Shown here: positions 2,394 through 10,796 of the stretch, in pieces
Layout of the letters: every line of letters begins with the position of its first letter
Numbering within the stretch: position 1 is the stretch's first letter
DNA from: an uncultured Spartobacteria bacterium
GTDB taxonomy: Bacteria > Verrucomicrobiota > Verrucomicrobiia > Chthoniobacterales > Chthoniobacteraceae
Reading direction: 5' to 3'
DNA: 41,564 nucleotides
Assembly: GCA_903901425.1 (NCBI GenBank)
Contig: CAIURC010000106.1
Location: forward strand, 1 to 41,564
Notes under the pieces: generated by a model
Database searches by the model: none
Told to the model about the DNA's origin: nothing
Seen by the model: the letters and a program-made list of their open reading frames with translations, nothing else
Position numbers and translations under genes: made by a program

Positions 2394-3689
2394 ATGCATT
2401 CCTTCGCCTACCTGTACGAGCGGTTTCCTTCGTTTGTTCAGACGTTTGTCTACCGGGAAGCGAGCGAAATGATCGCCCAGGGCATGAACCCTCTTCTGGT
2501 CTCCATCCGCCCCCCGGAAGATCACCCCACCCTCGCCGCGGAATTCGAGGCCCCCGTGCTTTACCTTCCAGACTCCGGCGAAATCCGCTCCGAGATCGAC
2601 ACCCTCAGAAAACAACGGCGGCTCCCCCGCAAAACCCACAAGCTTCTTCCAGAGGCGCGCGCGGAGAAGGACTCCACCCGCCTTTTTGAAGCCGCTTGGC
2701 TGGGACCGCGCCTCCTCGAACTCGGCATCCGCCATGTCCACGCTCATTTTGGCGGTATGGCCGCACGCACCGCATGGTGGCTTCGCGAACTCCATGGCAT
2801 CACCTACAGCTTCACCGGGCACGCCAACGACATCTTCTGCCCAACAGATTTCCCAGTGTCGAATTCCGACCTAGCCAAGGCCGCAACGTTTGTCGTTACA
2901 GAAACCGATTTCGCAAAAAACTGGATGGAGGAACACCACCCGTCCGCCCGTGGCCGGGTCTTCCGGATCTACAACGGAATCGACTCCCGGTTCCCAGAAA
3001 AACCACCGGGGTTGAGCCCCAAAAAAATCCTGTCCGTGGGCCGGTACGTGGAAAAAAAGGGGTTCCCAGACCTCATTCGGGCGTGCCAAATCCTCCGCGA
3101 CCGAGGATTGGTCTTTTCGTGTTCCATCATTGGCGAGGGCCCGATGCACCGGGAACTCGAGTCTCTGGTCCGGGAACTGGATCTGGAAGGATTTGTCGAG
3201 ATTGCAGGCCCCCGTTCCCAGAATGCGGTGCGGAGCGCCCTTGCCGAAGCCGACCTGTTTGTACTTGCATGCGTCCCCGATCAGGAGGGAGGAAGCGACA
3301 ACCTACCCACCGTGATCATGGAAGCGATGATGTGCGGCACTCCGGTGGTTTCGACCACTCTGGCAGGGATTCCTGAAATGATCGCAAGCGGCCGCACGGG
3401 GCTCCTCACGCAACCAGGAAACCCCGGGGCACTGGCGGACGCACTTGCGCAACTCCTTCAGAACCCCACAACGGCGCAGACGCTTGCGGATGCCGGACGC
3501 CGGTTCGCATTGGAGAACTTTGCCGTGATCTCCACCACACGGCACCTCAAACACCTTTTGGTGTCCCGGGCCGGCGTCCAAGCTCCCCCGGAGGCGCTCC
3601 GCATCGATCCCGGCCTTCCCGCCGCACCGGCCCGAAGGCGGTGGTGGGACCGGATCCTTGGAACACAGGAACGCTCCAGCAACCCATAA
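2394..3689 (+). CDS. Glycosyltransferase family 4 (second of a pair)
   Basis: A 431-residue GT-B glycosyltransferase beginning MHSFAYLYERFPSFVQTFVYRE, which is typical of colanic-acid/exopolysaccharide-type GT4 enzymes. VHAHFGG and TYSFTGHANDIF lie in the acceptor domain. VEKKGFPDLIRAC starts the donor domain near residue 218. DNLPTVIMEAMMCGTPVVST followed by LAGIPEMI (residues about 302-330) contains the donor-binding glutamates. It shares layout with the upstream GT4 but is a distinct sequence. The stop codon is only 11 bases before the first small secretion-type gene, so the two GTs and the secretion-like genes are likely one transcript. The sugar and acceptor are unknown. Confidence 0.88.
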   Translation: MHSFAYLYERFPSFVQTFVYREASEMIAQGMNPLLVSIRPPEDHPTLAAEFEAPVLYLPDSGEIRSEIDTLRKQRRLPRKTHKLLPEARAEKDSTRLFEAAWLGPRLLELGIRHVHAHFGGMAARTAWWLRELHGITYSFTGHANDIFCPTDFPVSNSDLAKAATFVVTETDFAKNWMEEHHPSARGRVFRIYNGIDSRFPEKPPGLSPKKILSVGRYVEKKGFPDLIRACQILRDRGLVFSCSIIGEGPMHRELESLVRELDLEGFVEIAGPRSQNAVRSALAEADLFVLACVPDQEGGSDNLPTVIMEAMMCGTPVVSTTLAGIPEMIASGRTGLLTQPGNPGALADALAQLLQNPTTAQTLADAGRRFALENFAVISTTRHLKHLLVSRAGVQAPPEALRIDPGLPAAPARRRWWDRILGTQERSSNP

Positions 3690-3700
3690 CCTCCCACATC

Positions 3701-3973
3701 ATGGCACAAGCAATCATGGACCCCGAGCAGGTACGCCGGTTTGCGACCGAGCTCAAACGATTCAACGAGGAAATGCAGTCCAAAGCCGGCGCCCTCCAGG
3801 CCCGGTTCAACTCGCTCTCCTCGACCTGGCAGGATCAGGAACACGCAAAGTTCTCTGAGGAATTTCTGGCCACGATGAAGGCCCTCCGTCGCTTCATGGA
3901 GGTCGCCGAACAGCACACTCCCTTCCTCCTCCGCAAGGCGCAGCGGATCGAAGACTACCTCAACCAGCGCTGA
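3701..3973 (+). CDS. WXG100-like small helical protein (WxD variant)
   Basis: A 90-residue protein with no signal peptide, predicted by eye to be almost all alpha-helix. Residues about 8-38 form the first helix. A turn holds W43-Q44-D45, and a second helix continues through HAKFSEEFLATMKALRRFMEVAEQH. This matches the size and helix-WxG-helix hairpin of WXG100 (ESAT-6-like) proteins, with Asp in place of Gly. In known type VII systems such proteins are exported dimers or export chaperones. Placement four genes upstream of a TolC-like gene and beside an EssC-like ATPase supports that role by inference. The ATG at 3701 is preferred over an in-frame upstream start that would lie inside the preceding GT4 gene. 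It is five bases upstream of the next gene. Confidence 0.7.
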   Translation: MAQAIMDPEQVRRFATELKRFNEEMQSKAGALQARFNSLSSTWQDQEHAKFSEEFLATMKALRRFMEVAEQHTPFLLRKAQRIEDYLNQR

Positions 3974-3978
3974 CTCCC

Positions 3979-4557
3979 ATGGCCGCACAAGCCAGAGTCT
4001 CGGCCGTCGATGCCCTGGAACTGTTCCGCACCCAACTCGTCCAGTATTCCACACGCTCCCACCAGTGCATTGACGAGGTCGGCGATGAAATCCGGCGGGT
4101 CCGGGCATGGATCCAGCACGACCGCAGATCCCACTGGGAGGCCGAACTCCGGCGACGTCGCCGGGACCTTGACCAGGCCGAACAGGAGTTGCTCACCGCC
4201 AAACTCTCCTCACTTCGCGACTCGTACACCCTCCAGAAAAACGCCGTGCTCCGTGCCCGGCGCGCGCTGGCGGAAGCGGAGGAAAAGATCCGGGCAATCA
4301 AGGTGTGGAGCCGGGATTTCGACAACCGCGTGGCACCGTTGCTCAAGCAAATGGAGGGCCTCCGGCAGCACCTCGACATTGACCTGCCCAAGGCCATTGC
4401 ATTCCTCCTGAAGGCTCAGGACACACTGGAATCGTATGCCGCCCTGCGCCCGCCCGCACTGCCGACCGACGCCGACTCCATGCGCCTGAACGCAGCCCCG
4501 GAAACGCCCCAAGATCCGGCTCCCGAGCCCACACCCCCGCCAACGCCCTCCGCATGA
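3979..4557 (+). CDS. Coiled-coil protein of the WXG100/FtsK-like locus, Pro-rich tail
   Basis: A 192-residue soluble protein without a signal peptide or membrane segment. Residues about 1-155 are charged and strongly helical. The segment HWEAELRRRRRDLDQAEQEL and the following LRARRALAEAEEKIRAIKVW have heptad character. The last 30 residues are proline- and acid-rich (TPQDPAPEPTPPPTPS). The stop overlaps the next ATG by four bases (ATGA), implying translational coupling. I do not recognise a named family. Size and composition resemble the longer helical substrates or adaptors that accompany WXG100 proteins (for example LXG-like N-terminal domains), but no diagnostic motif is visible. A role in the secretion-like complex is inferred from position only. 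Confidence 0.55.
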   Translation: MAAQARVSAVDALELFRTQLVQYSTRSHQCIDEVGDEIRRVRAWIQHDRRSHWEAELRRRRRDLDQAEQELLTAKLSSLRDSYTLQKNAVLRARRALAEAEEKIRAIKVWSRDFDNRVAPLLKQMEGLRQHLDIDLPKAIAFLLKAQDTLESYAALRPPALPTDADSMRLNAAPETPQDPAPEPTPPPTPSA

Positions 4558-4766
4558 GCACTCAATCCAGCGCGGCCAACCTCGCTCAGGCCCTCAAGGA
4601 ACTCCACTTCGAGTGGCAGCAGACCGAAGCGTCTTGGCAGGACCACAAAGCCGCCGAGTTCCATTCCCGCTTCCTTGACCCGCTCCCCGCGCAAGTTGCA
4701 CGGGCCACCAACGCCATTCAGGAAATCCACAAACTCCTCTCCCAAGCCCGTTCCGACTGTGAGTAA
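4554..4766 (+). CDS. Very small WXG100-like protein (WxD variant)
   Basis: A 70-residue helical protein that repeats the core of the gene at 3701. W28-Q29-D30 sits between two helices, and the following HKAAEFHSRFLDPL parallels the first protein's EHAKFSEEFLATM. It lacks most of the first helix of its relative, so it is shorter than standard WXG100 proteins (about 100 residues). The start overlaps the preceding stop by four bases. Its own stop (4764-4766) lies eight bases inside the downstream ATPase gene, so all three appear translationally coupled. Likely a dimer partner of the 90-residue protein or a component acting with the ATPase; this is inference. Confidence 0.6.
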   Translation: MSTQSSAANLAQALKELHFEWQQTEASWQDHKAAEFHSRFLDPLPAQVARATNAIQEIHKLLSQARSDCE

Positions 4767-7700
4767 CCAGCCTGCTTTCTCCAAAATCCCGTCCCTGCTC
4801 AGGAGCCTGCGCGAGTCGCTCAACCACTTCGCGAAAACGGAGTCCCAACTGCAGCGCGACTTCCGCCAGCGTCGGGCTTTGCTTGAGCACCGGGCAACTC
4901 AGGCTCTTGAACAAATCGACGCTTCCGCCGCCGCCCGCATCGCTCAGGCGGAGGCCGAAAAGCTCGACCTGGAGTCCCAGATCCAGACCCGGGCCAGCCA
5001 GCGCCGCGAACGGATCACCCGTGCCCACGCAGCAGCCCAACGCTCGATCCCGAAACGGGCCCAGGTGGCCCGTGAAAAATGGCTCGGCCAAATTCAGCAC
5101 CAGCGCTTCCTCTCCGAACGTCTCTACAGCAACTCCCTCCGGGAAACAGACGCCAAATTCATTGAAGCCACCAAGTTTCTCACCGAATCCCGAGACCGGT
5201 ATGCCCAACTCCAATCGGCCGCCCGGCGGATTCTGAGCGGTTGCCCCGGCCTCTCCAAACTGCTCCTCCGCCCGATTGAGGATGCCCCGGCGGATCCCAC
5301 CCAGATGGAACGGTGGCGCCTGGAACTCGAATCCCAAACCACAGCGGCCACCGCAGCCCTCCACGCGCTCCAGGCCAGAGCCGGCCTCCGTTTTTTCTCA
5401 AAACTCCCGCTGCCCACCGTTCTCCCTTTTGCCGCTCTTCTCTCCTGCGCGGGACTGATCCCCCACGGCCCAAATCCCAGCGGGTTCCTCCTTGCAGGCT
5501 CCATTTTTTCGGCCCAGGCGATCCTCGTTTTCCTGCTCCGCGCAACCGCCACCTCGCGGGCACGCCCGGACGCCATCCGCCTCGCAGAAGGGTTGCACGG
5601 CGCCGGCGCGGCGCATCAAGCCAGCTGCGCGAGCACCGACGCATGGCATGCGCGGGAACGCGACCGGATCCAGTCCGAGTTTGATCAGAGATCAGAAAAC
5701 CTCACGACCCGGTGGAACCAGGCCGATGCCAAGGAGGCTGAACACGCCCGCAGTCTGGCCCAGAAACTCGACCACCAGCTTCCCCGAAGCCTGCAAACCA
5801 ATGCACGGATGGCCCAGTCTGCAATCCAACGGGCTGCAGATCACCGCCAACCCGCCCTCCAAGGAGCCGAGGCTACAGAGCAGGCACGCAGGAAACGCAT
5901 CCTTGAACAACTCGAGTCCGATCGCACCGCGCTGACAAACGAAGAGAATGCGCATTGGCAGGTGCTTTTCAAGCAGTGGCGGGAAACACTTCCTCCCACC
6001 TGGCACGCGCTCATGGGCGCCGCCGCCAAACTCCCACCCTCCCCGCCTCCATGGTCCCCCGATTCGGTCGCGGATTGGAACCCGTCCACCGGGTTTCCCG
6101 AGTCCATTCCGCTGGGTGACTTTGGAATCCGTCTCAAAGGCCCGGGCCTCCCCGCGCCTTCAAGCCCGGAACTTTCCCTGCTCGGCCCGGAGGAGCTCCG
6201 GCTGCCCCTGGCGCTTGAACTGCCCACAGGAGGCAACCTTCTGGTGGAATGCACCGAACCCGGCTCGCCGGAGGTGGCCGCCGTGTTTAACCAAGTTCTG
6301 ATCCGGCTCCTCTCCAGCCTGCCCCCGGGCAAATTCAGCTGCACCGTGTTCGATCCCATCGGCCTGGGCCAAAACTTTGCCGGCCTCATGCATCTGGGCG
6401 ACTACGAGGAAAGCCTGATCAATCGGCGAATCTGGACGCAGAGCGATCAACTCGATGCCCGCCTCGCCGAACTCAACGCGCATATCGAAAAAGTCATCCA
6501 GATGTACCTGCGCGACGAGTACCCAACGATCTCCGATTACAACGCGCGGGCCGGTGTGGTTTCGGAAAAGTATCATTTTCTGGTCCTCGCCGATTTTCCC
6601 ACCGAATGCAGCGAGGCGTCCGCAAAACGTCTCCACAGTATCCTGGCCAGCGGCGCCCGCTGCGGCGTCTTTACCCTCCTCCACTGGAACCCCAGAAATC
6701 CCCCCCCGCAGGAGATCTCGCTTGAAGACCTCAGCCGCCACTGCCTGAGACTCCGCTTGGAAAACGGCTCCTGGCACGCTCCGGACTCACCGCTGCCGGA
6801 AGGCTGCGGGATCGAGCTTCTGCCACCGCCAAGCACCCAACTCGGCAGCGAACTCATCCACAGGATCGGACGAGCCAACGTCAATTCCACCCGGGTTCAG
6901 GTCCCGTTCAGCCAAATCGCCCCGTCCCAAGATGCCGTCTGGTCGGGCTCCACCACCCTCGAACTGCGCGTCCCAATTGGCCGGACTGGCGCCACCAAAC
7001 AACAGTTCTTTTCGCTCGGATACGGCACCCGACAGCACGCACTTCTGGCCGGCAAAACGGGTTCCGGAAAATCCACACTGCTCCACGTCCTCATCACCAA
7101 TCTTGCGCTCCATTTCAGCCCCGCAGAGGTCGAGTTCTACCTCATCGACTTCAAGAAGGGCGTCGAGTTTAAGTGCTACGCGGAACACAGACTTCCCCAT
7201 GCCCGGGTCATTGCCGTGGAGAGTGACCGGCAGTTCGCACTCAGCGTCCTGGAACGCATCGACGACGAGCTCCGCAGACGCGGCGAAATCTTCCGTGCCC
7301 TTGGTGTCCAAGACCTGGCCGGCTACCGCAAGACAGGCTCTCAGGAACCCATCCCGCGTTCGCTTCTGCTCATCGACGAGTTCCAAGAGTTCTTCGTCGA
7401 AGACGACTCGATTGCGCAGAAGGCCGCCCTTCTCCTCGACCGGATTGTCCGCCAAGGCCGCGCCTTTGGAATGCACGCCCTACTCGGCTCCCAGACTCTG
7501 GGCGGCGCGTACACGCTCGCCAGAACCACACTCGGCCAGATGGGCGTCCGGATTGCGCTCCAGTGCAACGAGGCCGATGCCTACCTGATCATGGATGAGG
7601 ACAACGCAGCCCCGCGCCTGCTCTCGCGCCCCGGTGAAGGCATCTACAACGATGCCGCCGGCGCCCTCGAGGGAAACAGCCCGTTCCAAGTCGTGTGGCT

Positions 7701-8667
7701 GCCTGACTCCGAGCGCGATGCGCTCCTGCGGCAAATCTCCGACCGCGCCACCGCGAACCCGACTCCAGTCCCTGAACCGGTTATCTTCGAGGGAAACGCG
7801 CCCGCAATTCTCGCCGAAAACACCCTTCTCAGGGGCCTTCTGGAAGGCACCCTGCCGCCTTCGACTCCACCGAGGGCATGGCTCGGCGCACCAAACGCCA
7901 TCAAAGGACCCACCGAAATCCTGTTTCCGCGTCAAAACGGCAGGAACCTCCTCCTGGTCGGACAACGACAGGAATCCGTGCTCGGGATTTTCGCGTCCTG
8001 CATTCTTTCGGTCGCGGCCGGATTGCCTCCGCAGAGGGCCCGGTTCCATATTCTGCACGCGTCCGCGCCAGACTCCCGGGAATGTCAGACATTTGACCTG
8101 CTCTCCTCGACCCTGCCGCACGCCGTTTCCTCGGCGGGTCCTTCAGAATCGGGCTCACTTCTGGAGCAACTCGGAGACGAGCTCCATGCCCGGACCGCCT
8201 CCCCGCAGAACGATGCACCGCAGGTTTTTGTGCTGCTGCACGACCTCCACAGGAACCGCAAACTGCGCTACGATGAGGATGCCGCGTTTTCCTTCTCGTC
8301 TGAGGCCCCGCGCAACCCGGGCCTGATTCTGGACGAACTCCTCGTGCAAGGAAGCGCCGTTGGAATTCATGTCCTGGCCAGTCTGGACTCCCTCAGCAGC
8401 GTCCAGCGCTTCTTCAGCCGCAAATCCCTCTCGGAATTCGAGATGCGCGTGCTCTTCCAGATGAGCCCAAACGATTCCTCCTCGCTCATCGACTCCCCCC
8501 TAGCCTCCTCACTTGGACTCCACCGGGCCCTGCTCGCCCACGAACAACAGGGCATCCTCGAAACATTCCGCCCCTACGCGCTTCCCTCCCAAGAGTGGAT
8601 CCGCTCCGCGGCGGGAGGGATCTCCAAAAAGTTTGCCCCGGCTCCCTCAGACACAGCCTTGCCCTAA
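4759..8667 (+). CDS. EssC/FtsK-type membrane ATPase with coiled coils
   Basis: A 1302-residue motor protein. The GTG at 4759 overlaps the preceding gene by eight bases; an upstream in-frame TTG would lie deep inside that gene. Order of parts: a coiled-coil N-terminus (1 to about 190, QAEAEKLDLESQIQ); two membrane helices (about 218-235 and 241-262); a second coiled coil (about 290-420); then three FtsK-like modules. The first (near 490) has no Walker A. The second has a perfect Walker A, GKTGSGKST (765-773), and Walker B LLLIDE with D873-E874. The third (near 1067) reads VGQRQESV where a P-loop is expected. Two adjacent membrane helices followed by tandem P-loop modules are the EssC/EccC layout of type VII secretion, but the forkhead-associated N-terminus of Firmicute EssC is absent. 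DNA translocation cannot be excluded, although no gamma DNA-reading domain is visible. Confidence 0.85.
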   Translation: MSNQPAFSKIPSLLRSLRESLNHFAKTESQLQRDFRQRRALLEHRATQALEQIDASAAARIAQAEAEKLDLESQIQTRASQRRERITRAHAAAQRSIPKRAQVAREKWLGQIQHQRFLSERLYSNSLRETDAKFIEATKFLTESRDRYAQLQSAARRILSGCPGLSKLLLRPIEDAPADPTQMERWRLELESQTTAATAALHALQARAGLRFFSKLPLPTVLPFAALLSCAGLIPHGPNPSGFLLAGSIFSAQAILVFLLRATATSRARPDAIRLAEGLHGAGAAHQASCASTDAWHARERDRIQSEFDQRSENLTTRWNQADAKEAEHARSLAQKLDHQLPRSLQTNARMAQSAIQRAADHRQPALQGAEATEQARRKRILEQLESDRTALTNEENAHWQVLFKQWRETLPPTWHALMGAAAKLPPSPPPWSPDSVADWNPSTGFPESIPLGDFGIRLKGPGLPAPSSPELSLLGPEELRLPLALELPTGGNLLVECTEPGSPEVAAVFNQVLIRLLSSLPPGKFSCTVFDPIGLGQNFAGLMHLGDYEESLINRRIWTQSDQLDARLAELNAHIEKVIQMYLRDEYPTISDYNARAGVVSEKYHFLVLADFPTECSEASAKRLHSILASGARCGVFTLLHWNPRNPPPQEISLEDLSRHCLRLRLENGSWHAPDSPLPEGCGIELLPPPSTQLGSELIHRIGRANVNSTRVQVPFSQIAPSQDAVWSGSTTLELRVPIGRTGATKQQFFSLGYGTRQHALLAGKTGSGKSTLLHVLITNLALHFSPAEVEFYLIDFKKGVEFKCYAEHRLPHARVIAVESDRQFALSVLERIDDELRRRGEIFRALGVQDLAGYRKTGSQEPIPRSLLLIDEFQEFFVEDDSIAQKAALLLDRIVRQGRAFGMHALLGSQTLGGAYTLARTTLGQMGVRIALQCNEADAYLIMDEDNAAPRLLSRPGEGIYNDAAGALEGNSPFQVVWLPDSERDALLRQISDRATANPTPVPEPVIFEGNAPAILAENTLLRGLLEGTLPPSTPPRAWLGAPNAIKGPTEILFPRQNGRNLLLVGQRQESVLGIFASCILSVAAGLPPQRARFHILHASAPDSRECQTFDLLSSTLPHAVSSAGPSESGSLLEQLGDELHARTASPQNDAPQVFVLLHDLHRNRKLRYDEDAAFSFSSEAPRNPGLILDELLVQGSAVGIHVLASLDSLSSVQRFFSRKSLSEFEMRVLFQMSPNDSSSLIDSPLASSLGLHRALLAHEQQGILETFRPYALPSQEWIRSAAGGISKKFAPAPSDTALP

Positions 8668-8726
8668 GCGCCAGCCGAGCAGATAAAGGACGGCTTTCAA
8701 AACACCACATACCTGATCCAGGCCAC

Positions 8727-10436
8727 GTGAACTTCTTTGCCGCATCCAAATCCCGCCTCCTCCTACGGCTCACCCGGTTCACTCTGCTCCTCCCTTTCCT
8801 GCCCCGGCCTGTTCCTGGCGAAAACCTGGATTCGTTGCCGCCGCCCCCGAACCTCACAGATCCCGCCGTTCAGGGGCTCAAATCTGCTGCCCGCCTCCGC
8901 GCGATTCCGCTCTCGCTTGAACTGGCCTACGAACGCGCCACGCAGACCGACCAATCCATTCGGATCGCCTACTTGCGCCTCAAACGCTCCAAGCTTCTGC
9001 CATGGTCCGCGCTGACCCGCATGGAACCCAGAGCCGCAGCGTCCGCCGGCCGGGGCAAGACCGATGAGGACAGAAATTCTTCGTCTTTCTCCCGTGAAAA
9101 CCAGCCGCGCTCGGGATTCGGCTCCAGTCTGGACCGGTCCGTGGACACGCTGAACAGACCAAGATCCGGCACCGAATCCTACACGTTTGAAGAGGACCGG
9201 ATGGAGCGCCAGAGAGTTCCTTTGAGCACTCTGGACCGTTCCCAGCGAATCCAGAGTATGGAAGTCGTGCTCGAGCAACCGCTCCTCGACCTCACCGTGT
9301 TTCCCGCATGGAAGTTTGGGAAACTGGCCACTGAAGCTGCACGCCTCCAGTGCCGGGCTGTCACCCGCGATGTCCTGCTCGGCGTTGCGCACGCCTACTA
9401 CGACGCACTCAAGGCCGACTCCATCCTCCAACTCGCGCGTCAAACCGCAACCCTCGCGCGCGAACAGCAGGAACAGTCCAAAAACCGACTCGACGCCGGT
9501 GAAGCCCTCCGGACCGACCTGCTTCGGGCCAGGACTCTGGTCGAATCGACCCGCAGGGCCGAGATCGAGGCCCTCGCCCAGTCCCGACTCGCGCACGCCA
9601 CGTTGGCCACCCTCCTCAATCTGGACCCGGCACTGAACCTGGTTCTTTCCGAGCCCGCGCAGTTCCCGGAGCCCCATGGCGGCTTCGAAGACCACCTCCA
9701 GCGTGCGTACAGCCGGCGCGACGATTACACCGTGCGCTCGCATTTGGTTGAACAACAGCGCCTGAAGGAAAAGGAAGCCGCTCTCGGCTACCTGCCACGG
9801 GTCGTCGCCCAGTTCCGGGCACAGTCCGTGGATCAGGACGGTTCAAGCCGCGCCTCGGAAAAGGGCCGGCTCACCCGGGAATCCAACCGCAACTCCACAG
9901 GCACATTCACCGACACCTCGGTGGGAAACGGGTTCCGGACAGGCCCCATCTCCAGCTCGGAATCCGAGTTTTTCTCTCAGGACTTCAACAACCGCACCTC
10001 GAGCCGGAGTTCCCAGACCACCACGGGTTGGGAGGCCCTGCTGACGTTCGAGATGCCGCTTTGGGGCCAGCGCACCATTGACCTTCGCAAAGCCTCCTAC
10101 GACACCGCCATTGCGCGCACCGAACAGGAACAGGCCGCACGCAACCTGCGCGAAGAGGTCCGACTCGCATGGGTTGAGGCCAGCACCGCCCGGCAATCTG
10201 TCGAGACGCTGCGAGCCGAAGTCGATGCCGCAGAACAGACCCAACGCGACCTCCAGTCCCAGTACGCCGCAGGAACCGCCACCAGCCTCGAAATCCAGCA
10301 GGCCATCCGCGATCTTAACTCCGCAAGGTCCGCCCTGCTCACCCGCTCCTACGACCTCCAGATTGCACTCCGCGAACTCCAGCGCGCCACCGGCGAGTTC
10401 CAGTCCGAGCGCATCTCAAAACTCCAGTTCCGATGA
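8727..10436 (+). CDS. TolC-like outer-membrane efflux protein (OEP family)
   Basis: A 569-residue exported protein. The GTG start at 8727 gives an N-terminus with two Arg-rich turns and a hydrophobic stretch (LTRFTLLLPFLPRPVPG), a plausible signal peptide. Two OEP repeats are visible. Each has long amphipathic helices (first repeat: LARQTATLAREQQEQSKNRL and DAGEALRTDLLRAR; second: EAQQAT-like segments ending AAGTATSLEIQQAIRDLNSA). Each also has a beta-hairpin region, VVLEQPLLD in the first and LTFEMPLWGQ in the second. TolC proteins form trimeric outer-membrane channels. Ser/Arg-rich insertions sit in both beta-hairpin loops. It lies 59 bases after the ATPase stop on the same strand, with no inner-membrane fusion protein or pump nearby. 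That placement makes a link to the ATPase likely but unproven. Confidence 0.85.
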   Translation: MNFFAASKSRLLLRLTRFTLLLPFLPRPVPGENLDSLPPPPNLTDPAVQGLKSAARLRAIPLSLELAYERATQTDQSIRIAYLRLKRSKLLPWSALTRMEPRAAASAGRGKTDEDRNSSSFSRENQPRSGFGSSLDRSVDTLNRPRSGTESYTFEEDRMERQRVPLSTLDRSQRIQSMEVVLEQPLLDLTVFPAWKFGKLATEAARLQCRAVTRDVLLGVAHAYYDALKADSILQLARQTATLAREQQEQSKNRLDAGEALRTDLLRARTLVESTRRAEIEALAQSRLAHATLATLLNLDPALNLVLSEPAQFPEPHGGFEDHLQRAYSRRDDYTVRSHLVEQQRLKEKEAALGYLPRVVAQFRAQSVDQDGSSRASEKGRLTRESNRNSTGTFTDTSVGNGFRTGPISSSESEFFSQDFNNRTSSRSSQTTTGWEALLTFEMPLWGQRTIDLRKASYDTAIARTEQEQAARNLREEVRLAWVEASTARQSVETLRAEVDAAEQTQRDLQSQYAAGTATSLEIQQAIRDLNSARSALLTRSYDLQIALRELQRATGEFQSERISKLQFR

Positions 10437-10463
10437 CCCCCTCGTTCCGCTGACCCGCTCAAT

Positions 10464-10796
10464 TCACGGTTTTTTACCGTAACTTCCGAACAGGTAATCC
10501 ACCAAGGGCGCCACCTGTTCCGCCGGAACCGTGGCCCCAAATTTCGACTGCATTTTCTCCACAGCCCCCTGCCAGTAGGCCCGCGGCAACAGGGGTTGGG
10601 TGGTGAAATACTCCGCCGAGTGACAGGTCAAACAGTGGCTCAATGCAATGTCCCGGCCCGGCCCAGGCTTGAGCACCGGCGCCTCCAAGGGCAGTTCAAT
10701 CCGGACGGGTGCAGCCCCCAAAGCGCCCACCAAGGCCAGACCCGCCAGACTCCAGAGCGCCATTCTTTTCATGGTTCCGTTGGTATGCGTCTTCAT
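10464..10796 (-). CDS. Sulfite dehydrogenase cytochrome c subunit (SorB-like)
   Basis: A 110-residue c-type cytochrome with a hydrophobic export signal (MALWSLAGLALVGALGAAP). It has one heme-binding motif C55-L-T-C58-H59, and a distal methionine is present in the helix VEKMQSKFG. The region SAEYFTTQPLLPRAYW and the ending VDYLFGSYGKKP resemble SorB of sulfite:cytochrome c oxidoreductase. The start codon overlaps the stop of the molybdoenzyme gene by four bases (ATGA), so the two are translationally coupled. In the periplasm it would accept the electrons from sulfite oxidation and pass them to the respiratory chain. The molybdoenzyme partner makes the assignment fairly firm. Confidence 0.8.
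   Translation of the reverse strand: MKTHTNGTMKRMALWSLAGLALVGALGAAPVRIELPLEAPVLKPGPGRDIALSHCLTCHSAEYFTTQPLLPRAYWQGAVEKMQSKFGATVPAEQVAPLVDYLFGSYGKKP

What the first reader, a model, noticed from the sequence alone, without database searches (positions are those of the whole stretch)
3701..10436. A type VII-like secretion locus in a diderm, ending in a TolC-type channel
Five consecutive plus-strand genes join two small WxD-motif helical hairpin proteins, a coiled-coil protein, an EssC/FtsK-layout ATPase with two membrane helices, and a TolC-family outer-membrane protein. Three of the four junctions are overlapping or within six bases. WXG100 proteins with an EssC/EccC ATPase define type VII secretion in monoderms and mycobacteria, where no TolC is involved. 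WXG100-like genes have been noted before in Verrucomicrobia and Planctomycetes, but I know of no characterised system that pairs them with a TolC-like exit. The inference is a two-membrane export path: ATPase in the inner membrane, TolC in the outer membrane.
Basis: partly seen in the sequence, partly recalled or inferred. Interest (0 to 1): 0.87.

Follow-up and report, generated by a model that had tools for sequence, protein, structure and literature searches.

The report
Membrane-tethered WXG100 motor cassette, no TolC
A four-gene module related to the type VII secretion motor of Gram-positive bacteria is real and strongly conserved across Verrucomicrobiota, but the neighbouring TolC-like gene looks like a chance neighbour, and some species have lost the motor's membrane anchor while keeping the other genes, so export itself is unproven.

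Summary
Genes 1-4 (A, WxD WXG100; B, helical hairpin; C, small WxD protein; D, EccC-like ATPase) form one conserved unit: 98 of 105 non-redundant D loci with room upstream carry A-B-C-D in order, and 26 of 26 D-bearing genomes of the order have A. Gene 5, the TolC-family protein, is not part of it: it follows D in 1 of 97 loci, the window itself. In two same-genus genomes its relatives lie on other contigs, beside a phytase-like gene. D's cytoplasmic part folds like EccC: DUF, one active ATPase, one degenerate ATPase. The family was noted in 2012, Verrucomicrobia named, as "mobile versions of T7SS" (PMC3482391, passage). New, as far as my searches show: D has two membrane helices in 95 of 106 relatives, but 11, in three clades, lack that segment; nine of the 11 keep A, B and C. 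D's anchor thus seems dispensable, and secretion is a leading hypothesis, not a finding.

The parts
3701..3973 (+). Gene A: 90-aa WXG100-family protein with WQD in place of WxG
   Evidence: Pfam PF06013 E 7e-9, over cut-off; W43 and D45 invariant in 18 rows; best PDB relatives H. pylori HP0062 3fx7/2gts, E 1e-12 and 3.5e-12, then EsxB/EsxA entries
3979..4557 (+). Gene B: 192-aa protein; one long antiparallel helical hairpin (residues 2-76 and 80-155) plus a low-confidence Pro-rich tail
   Evidence: AlphaFold mean pLDDT 90, 32 rows; no Pfam family over cut-off
4554..4766 (+). Gene C: 70-aa WxD protein, short WXG100-like
   Evidence: W28, D30, F36 invariant in 16 rows; TIGR03930 E 0.003; weak profile match to HP0062 (E 0.05)
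4759..8667 (+). Gene D: 1302-aa EccC-like ATPase (GTG start)
   Evidence: TIGR03924 E 1.3e-31; Foldseek of residues 425-1302: best 4nh0 EccC E 1.2e-29 over 888 columns, TM-score 0.32
5404..5538 (+). Two hydrophobic helices of D (residues 216-260), the segment lost in three clades of relatives
   Evidence: hydropathy scan; 95 of 106 relatives have two, 11 have none
6031..6885 (+). DUF-like module of D, residues 425-709
   Evidence: VIA Z 14.6 to EccC5 DUF domain 8rin, rmsd 3.9 over 219 residues
6889..7743 (+). Active ATPase module of D, residues 711-995; Walker A AGKTGSGKST at 7048-7077
   Evidence: VIA Z 23.5 to EccCb1-D2 (9jv8), rmsd 2.8 over 247; Z 25.2 to FtsK motor 6t8b; Walker A read
7783..8589 (+). 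Degenerate third ATPase-like module of D, residues 1009-1277 (no Walker A by reading)
   Evidence: VIA Z 18.3 to 6jd5_B (listed only as ATPase) and 14.8 to EssC D3 6tv1
8727..10436 (+). TolC/OEP-family gene: real, but judged NOT part of the module
   Evidence: Pfam OEP E 1e-34; next to D in 1 of 97 loci; relatives on other contigs beside PF13449 genes in two same-genus genomes

Best explanation
A-B-C-D is a minimal, usually membrane-tethered member of the 'solo WXG plus EccC-like ATPase' family known from diderms. A, C and B are helical proteins that associate into a bundle, which D recognises and works on with its single active ATPase module. The most likely outcome is export of A and B (with C) across the inner membrane, as in type VII systems, with B as carrier: in relatives elsewhere the gene in B's position ends in a nuclease-type domain. 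The TolC-family gene next door is not the exit. Shown: the four-gene unit, the EccC-like fold of D, the WXG100 identity of A, the predicted hairpin of B, the non-conservation of the OEP gene. Inferred: complex formation, ATP-driven handling, export. Rough confidence by step: unit 0.97; OEP not part 0.93; D acts on A/B/C 0.8; export across the inner membrane 0.45-0.5. How anything would cross the outer membrane is unknown.
For: Order: 98 of 105 unique loci with at least 1.3 kb upstream carry A-B-C-D in order (124 loci with D, 114 left after removing D at 97% identity or more). B and C overlap by 4 bp in 12 of 17 loci. Flanking genes differ between most loci, with shared flanks in L046-L048. Co-occurrence: order, 26 of 26 D genomes have A, 1 of 171 others has A only (p 1e-31); phylum, 20 of 22 D genomes have A, 1 weak A-only of 365 (p 3e-30). 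D residues 425-1302 are nearest EccC; modules 2 and 3 together align with EccC ATPases 2 and 3 (4n1a, Z 24.5, rmsd 8.3, 478 residues) and module 1 with the EccC5 DUF. 95 of 106 D proteins carry two membrane helices. Relatives put an effector-like domain in the B position: Helicobacter L225 has A, a 340-aa protein ending in a WHH/colicin-DNase domain, a SUKH immunity-type gene, a 77-aa gene, then D; Caballeronia L227 and Verrucomicrobial L051/L210 have A, then a 436-445-aa protein with a helical-looking N-terminal part and a further domain, then D (PMC11090510 describes a coiled coil fused to a D-ExK nuclease there).
Against: Eleven D proteins in three clades lack the membrane segment; nine of these have A, B and C, L084 has only C nearby and L100 starts at its contig edge. 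D relatives L051, L210 and L226 show no hydrophobic segment and L227 only marginal ones; Helicobacter L225 has two isolated ones (121-137, 455-471), not a pair; L224 one near its start and marginal ones. The B profile does not match the Helicobacter nuclease protein (E 5) or Caballeronia's (E 0.6), and only weakly the others (L051 E 0.004, L210 E 0.03, L224 E 7e-5), so B's kinship to them is positional, not shown. No YukD/EsaB (PF08817) or YukC/EssB (PF10140) in the window's genome; the B. subtilis control rings. YxxxD/E in the C-terminal part: 0 of 18 A, 6 of 17 B. B has no toxin domain: median 9 residues after the profile end, at most 72 (98 loci). The overall superposition on EccC is loose (TM-score 0.32, rmsd 16.6). 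The A profile was built from loci found through D, and Fisher tests treat related genomes as independent, so the p values are overstated. No expression, localisation or secretion data exist here.
Confidence: 0.5

Rival explanations
1. Not a secretion system. D is an ATP-driven remodelling or assembly machine that acts on the A/B/C helical bundle in the cytoplasm or at the inner face of the membrane, as part of a stress or conflict response; the membrane helices only tether it.
For: Loss of the membrane segment in three clades, with A, B and C kept in nine of the 11 loci. Relatives of D sit in conflict-type clusters with vWA, PP2C, kinase, CARF and helicase genes (L051, L227) or near TerD genes (Rhodococcus L224), and show no clear membrane pair. 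PMC11090510 (passages) notes that the CoCoNuT-linked EssC homologues lack membrane domains and that a different mechanism appears likely. PADLOC SspH and mad8 profiles hit D, though only its ATPase module.
Against: 95 of 106 Verrucomicrobial D have both helices. The D fold is nearest EccC. A nuclease-type gene with a SUKH gene between A and D in Helicobacter fits delivery to other cells better than a purely internal role. The authors of PMC11090510 still consider secretion likely.
Confidence: 0.33
2. One reading: a two-membrane export path with D in the inner membrane and the adjacent TolC-family protein as the dedicated outer-membrane exit.
For: Same strand, 59 bp after D; no terminator-like site listed between D and E; the OEP family assignment is sound. 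Over the whole order, D and P0005-like genes do co-occur more than expected (8 of 26 against 12 of 171, p 0.001).
Against: 1 of 97 loci; about 0.2 such neighbours expected by chance over 97 loci, taking 9 OEP genes among roughly 4400. Inside the window's family the co-occurrence disappears (p 0.34). Same-genus genomes G402 and G468 hold both genes on separate, long contigs. None of the five genes is an HlyD-type adaptor. Three other loci have an OEP gene 3-5 kb away, one on the opposite strand next to a 12-helix 1046-aa gene that looks like an RND pump (not scanned).
Confidence: 0.04
3. D is a DNA pump (FtsK-like) and the small proteins are adaptors for DNA.
For: The active module matches the FtsK motor with DNA (Z 25.2) at least as well as EccC/EssC modules (Z 23.5-24.5).
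Against: The layout over all three modules matches EccC; sequence models rank EccCa (E 1e-31) far above FtsK (E 6.5e-9); no FtsK gamma-type domain among the Pfam matches.
Confidence: 0.1

Closest known systems
Solo-WXG systems with a three-domain YueA-like ATPase, only the middle domain active (Zhang et al. 2012, PMC3482391, table footnote; passages seen)
   Same: WXG protein without toxin fusion; ATPase with three FtsK/HerA-type modules of which only the middle keeps Walker A; verrucomicrobia named by the authors
   Different: The footnote gives no operon; here a fixed four-gene order with B and C, and a membrane pair in most D
H. pylori WXG100 secretion system, HP0062/HP0066 (PMC4978471, PMC3397514; passages seen)
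   Same: WxD instead of WxG (WRD in HP0062), helical hairpin, FtsK/SpoIIIE partner gene; the A profile finds HP0062 first in PDB
   Different: The H. pylori cluster includes an HNH/EndoVII-type nuclease (table in PMC4978471), as does Helicobacter L225; none in the Verrucomicrobial B
[quoted passage not shown] passages seen)
   Same: EssC-like ATPase with N-terminal coiled coil and one active module, WXG100 proteins, coiled-coil partner
   Different: That version lies between vWA genes, its coiled coil carries a nuclease, and its ATPase lacks membrane helices; the window has no such neighbours
Type VII secretion systems T7SSa/T7SSb (ESX, Ess/Yuk)
   Same: WXG100 protein, EccC/EssC-type ATPase with DUF-like module and two membrane helices
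   Different: One ATPase module fewer, WxD motif, no EsaB or EssB homologue found, diderm host, no conserved export motif

Membership tests
Type VII secretion (T7SSa/T7SSb) | WXG100-family protein in the locus | tested here: met
   PF06013 36.2 bits, cut-off 27.3; below the TIGR03930 cut-off, 31.2 of 44.85
Type VII secretion (T7SSa/T7SSb) | W-x-G at the hairpin turn | tested here: not met
   W-x-D in all 18 aligned A proteins and all 16 aligned C proteins
Type VII secretion (T7SSa/T7SSb) | EccC/EssC ATPase: two membrane helices, DUF, three ATPase modules | tested here: not met
   Helices present in the window; DUF-like module plus two, not three, further modules, one with Walker A
Type VII secretion (T7SSa/T7SSb) | YukD/EsaB (PF08817) and YukC/EssB (PF10140) | tested here: not met
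   None in the window's genome, 96% complete; B. subtilis control positive
Type VII secretion (T7SSa/T7SSb) | EccB, EccD membrane part, EccE, EssA, EsaA | not tested
   no search run
Type VII secretion (T7SSa/T7SSb) | YxxxD/E export motif | tested here: not met
   C-terminal part: 0 of 18 A, 6 of 17 B
Type VII secretion (T7SSa/T7SSb) | ATP-dependent export of WXG100 proteins | not testable with these tools
   needs secretome of wild type and D deletion
Solo-WXG systems with three-module ATPase (PMC3482391) | Three FtsK/HerA-type modules, only the middle active | tested here: met
   Fold of D, and Walker A only in the middle module by reading
Solo-WXG systems with three-module ATPase (PMC3482391) | WXG protein without fused toxin | tested here: met
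   A is 90 aa
Solo-WXG systems with three-module ATPase (PMC3482391) | Mobile | tested here: inconclusive
   Flanks differ between most loci and distribution is patchy (26 of 197); neighbouring window genes were read, not scanned, for mobility functions
TolC-dependent export | OEP gene conserved with the transporter | tested here: not met
   1 of 97 loci; same-genus relatives elsewhere
CoCoNuT Type III-A extension (PMC11090510) | vWA, kinase, PP2C, CARF and helicase genes around the ATPase | tested here: inconclusive
   None seen next to the window's D by reading the neighbouring ORFs, which were not Pfam-scanned; found in L051 by Pfam and annotated in L227

The most novel reading that the evidence does not exclude
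WXG100/EccC modules are not inherently secretion machines. The Verrucomicrobial cassette is an ATP-driven machine for handling helical-hairpin complexes that works with or without a membrane anchor, and type VII secretion is one specialised use of an older cytoplasmic activity.
Probability: 0.3. Interest if true: 0.78.

Novelty: new variant of a known kind. Interest (0 to 1): 0.5.

Why it matters
A WXG100 plus EccC/EssC pair is commonly read as secretion. Here a natural experiment exists: related cassettes with and without the membrane pair of the motor. Comparing them in culturable Verrucomicrobia would test whether the WXG100 motor needs a membrane, and whether diderms export Esx-type proteins at all. 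Taking the TolC gene out of the model saves others from building on a chance neighbour.

Tried and rejected
TolC as conserved partner: rejected. The order-wide association between D and P0005-like genes (8 of 26 against 12 of 171, p 0.001) looks like a lineage effect: inside the window's family it vanishes (8 of 21 against 11 of 19, p 0.34).

Defence-system filing: PADLOC hits cover the ATPase module only; not filed as a defence system. Fold of B: Foldseek gave no match at E 0.001 or better, only long helical proteins. Phage records: in the ten listed of 141, P0004 matches cover at most 49% of the query; a phage link was not followed. A scan of 3500-10700 found no sigma-70-like site and terminator-like sites at shuffle level (6 against a mean of 7.6).

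Search for a substitute membrane gene beside D without helices: 9 of the 11 loci examined (L088 and L100 not); nothing shared in the operon. In 4 of 7 examined loci of the nine-member clade (L075, L086, L090, L091) a two- to three-helix gene lies upstream on the opposite strand, which may be plain synteny.

Limits: the OEP profile was built here from P0005 by iteration (14 members) and may miss divergent OEPs. Gene calling is my own codon-usage caller. Membrane helices are from a Kyte-Doolittle scan with a threshold I chose; an earlier, cruder scan gave a wider spread of counts (63 of 114 with two, 15 with none). The tree behind the three clades is FastTree on the conserved D part, midpoint-rooted, with no test of the losses. 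In one search, 236 of 387 genomes match at 1e-10, mostly weak matches to the ATPase module; I counted only the 22 at 1.2e-41 or better. The seven of 105 loci without full A-B-C: L095 (B, C), L057 and L084 (C only), L050, L051 and L210 (the vWA-type cluster or its like, with A), L049 (A-B-C on another contig, L221).

Papers: PMC11217815 abstract and passages; PMC3397514, PMC11090510, PMC4978471 and PMC3482391 passages only; others search listings only. Anantharaman 2012 was not seen, only as cited in PMC11090510. 'New' rests on searches of open-access papers. The module count of canonical EccC/EssC beyond that passage, and the YxxxD/E motif, are recalled.
Full report
What is there. A (90 aa) is a WXG100 protein by Pfam; C (70 aa) is a weak relative; both have W-Q-D at the turn. 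B (192 aa) matches no Pfam family over cut-off. D (1302 aa, GTG start at 4759) scores best against EccC/EssC models, below their curated cut-offs. E (569 aa) is a TolC/OEP-family protein.

A conserved four-gene unit. The phylum-wide search (387 genomes) gave 22 genomes with a strong D match (E 1.2e-41 or better) and the order-wide search (197 genomes) gave 26 (E 1e-30 or better). I built profiles of A, B, C and D and scanned the loci. After removing near-identical D (97% or more), 114 of 124 loci remain. Of 105 with at least 1.3 kb upstream, 98 have A, B and C in order before D. A is in the same genomes as D: 26 of 26 in the order, with one A-only genome; 20 of 22 in the phylum, with one weak A-only genome. 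The two D genomes without A hold D on two short contigs (G320) or as a partial match (G051). In G086, A-B-C and D are on different contigs, both kept; in G004 A-B-C runs into D at a contig end.

The TolC gene is a neighbour. No other locus has an OEP gene next to D (1 of 97 with at least 2 kb downstream). Three of 114 have one 3-5 kb away. The two same-genus genomes with D, G402 and G468, carry the nearest P0005 relatives (42% and 38% identity) on other contigs, each followed by a phytase-like PF13449 gene; a third same-genus genome, G515, has a P0005 relative but no D match. The window's genome has its only PF13449 gene on yet another contig. In the window's family, P0005-like genes are no commoner with D than without (8 of 21 against 11 of 19). 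With about nine OEP genes in the genome, roughly 0.2 such neighbours are expected over 97 loci, so one is unremarkable.

What D is. AlphaFold of residues 425-1302 (26 rows, mean pLDDT 82, pTM 0.69) matches the EccC cytoplasmic domain best (4nh0, E 1.2e-29, 888 columns), though the overall superposition is loose (TM-score 0.32). By module: residues 425-709 resemble the EccC5 DUF domain; 711-995 EccCb1-D2 and the FtsK motor; 1009-1277 the EssC D3 module and ATPase 6jd5_B; the last two together align with EccC ATPases 2 and 3 (4n1a, Z 24.5). By sequence, though, the active module scores higher against EccC ATPase 1 than ATPase 2 (76.7 against 39.5 bits), so which module is missing is open. Only the middle module has a Walker A motif (by reading).

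The membrane anchor. 95 of 106 D proteins that cover the region have two hydrophobic helices, 11 have none and none has one; the 11 fall in three clades of nine, one and one. The alignment shows a deletion of roughly 40-55 residues with both flanks kept. Nine of the 11 have A, B and C; L084 shows only C although 8 kb upstream is held, and L100 starts at the contig edge. No replacement membrane gene is shared beside the nine examined. I regard this as the most informative new observation: it argues that the cassette's essential work does not need D itself to sit in the membrane.

Relatives in other phyla. Among the 15 plasmid records listed of 362, three cover half or more of D. Helicobacter L225: A (profile E 1e-20, just under the Pfam cut-off), a 340-aa protein ending in a WHH/colicin-type nuclease domain, a SUKH gene, a 77-aa gene, D. 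Caballeronia L227: vWA, WXG100, a 436-aa protein, two small genes, D, CARF protein, vWA, PP2C, kinase, helicase-like gene, matching Verrucomicrobial L051 and L210 and the CoCoNuT Type III-A extension described in PMC11090510. Rhodococcus L224 has D, a 314-aa protein and A near TerD genes. Deinococcus L226 has A-like genes after D. So the gene in the B position can carry an effector-like domain elsewhere; its homology to B is not shown by the B profile, except weakly. In Verrucomicrobia B is a bare hairpin with a low-confidence tail.

How it probably works. The helical proteins A, B and C likely associate and are handled by D. Export across the inner membrane is my leading reading at about even odds, because of the EccC-like fold, the usual anchor and the nuclease-plus-SUKH pair in Helicobacter. 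The loss of the anchor, the missing partner proteins and the absent export motif keep a non-secretory role open at about one third.

Known or new. The family was noted in 2012 with Verrucomicrobia named (PMC3482391), and in H. pylori in 2012 and 2016 (PMC3397514, PMC4978471). New, as far as these searches show, are the fixed four-gene order, the anchored form of D and its loss in three clades.

Noticed in passing
L223:10280-10564 (+), own genome contig C207: A second A-like protein in the window's genome that lacks the WxD motif; no B, C or D match in the 19.9 kb fetched around it (E 1e-14 to the A profile).
   Followed up: partly
L051:4666-18740; L210:5191-18615; L227:5555-18990: A second kind of WXG100-ATPase cluster with vWA, PP2C, kinase, CARF nuclease and helicase genes (named by Pfam in L051, by annotation in L227, by eye in L210) in Verrucomicrobiota and on a Caballeronia plasmid; matches the CoCoNuT Type III-A extension.
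   Followed up: partly
L225:5128-9530: Helicobacter plasmid: WXG100-like gene, protein with a WHH/colicin-type nuclease end, SUKH immunity-type gene and EccC-like ATPase in one run.
   Followed up: partly
L075, L079, L084, L086, L088, L090, L091, L096, L100, L119, L126 (D genes): The ATPase lacks the two-helix membrane segment, in three clades.
   Followed up: yes
L226:8117-8545: Deinococcus plasmid: a 142-aa protein with one strong C-terminal membrane helix sits just before a D relative without helices, as if the anchor were a separate subunit.
   Followed up: no
L204:7986-11194; L205:9246-12695: OEP gene followed by a phytase-like PF13449 gene in two genomes of the window's genus, a possible two-gene unit of its own.
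   Followed up: partly
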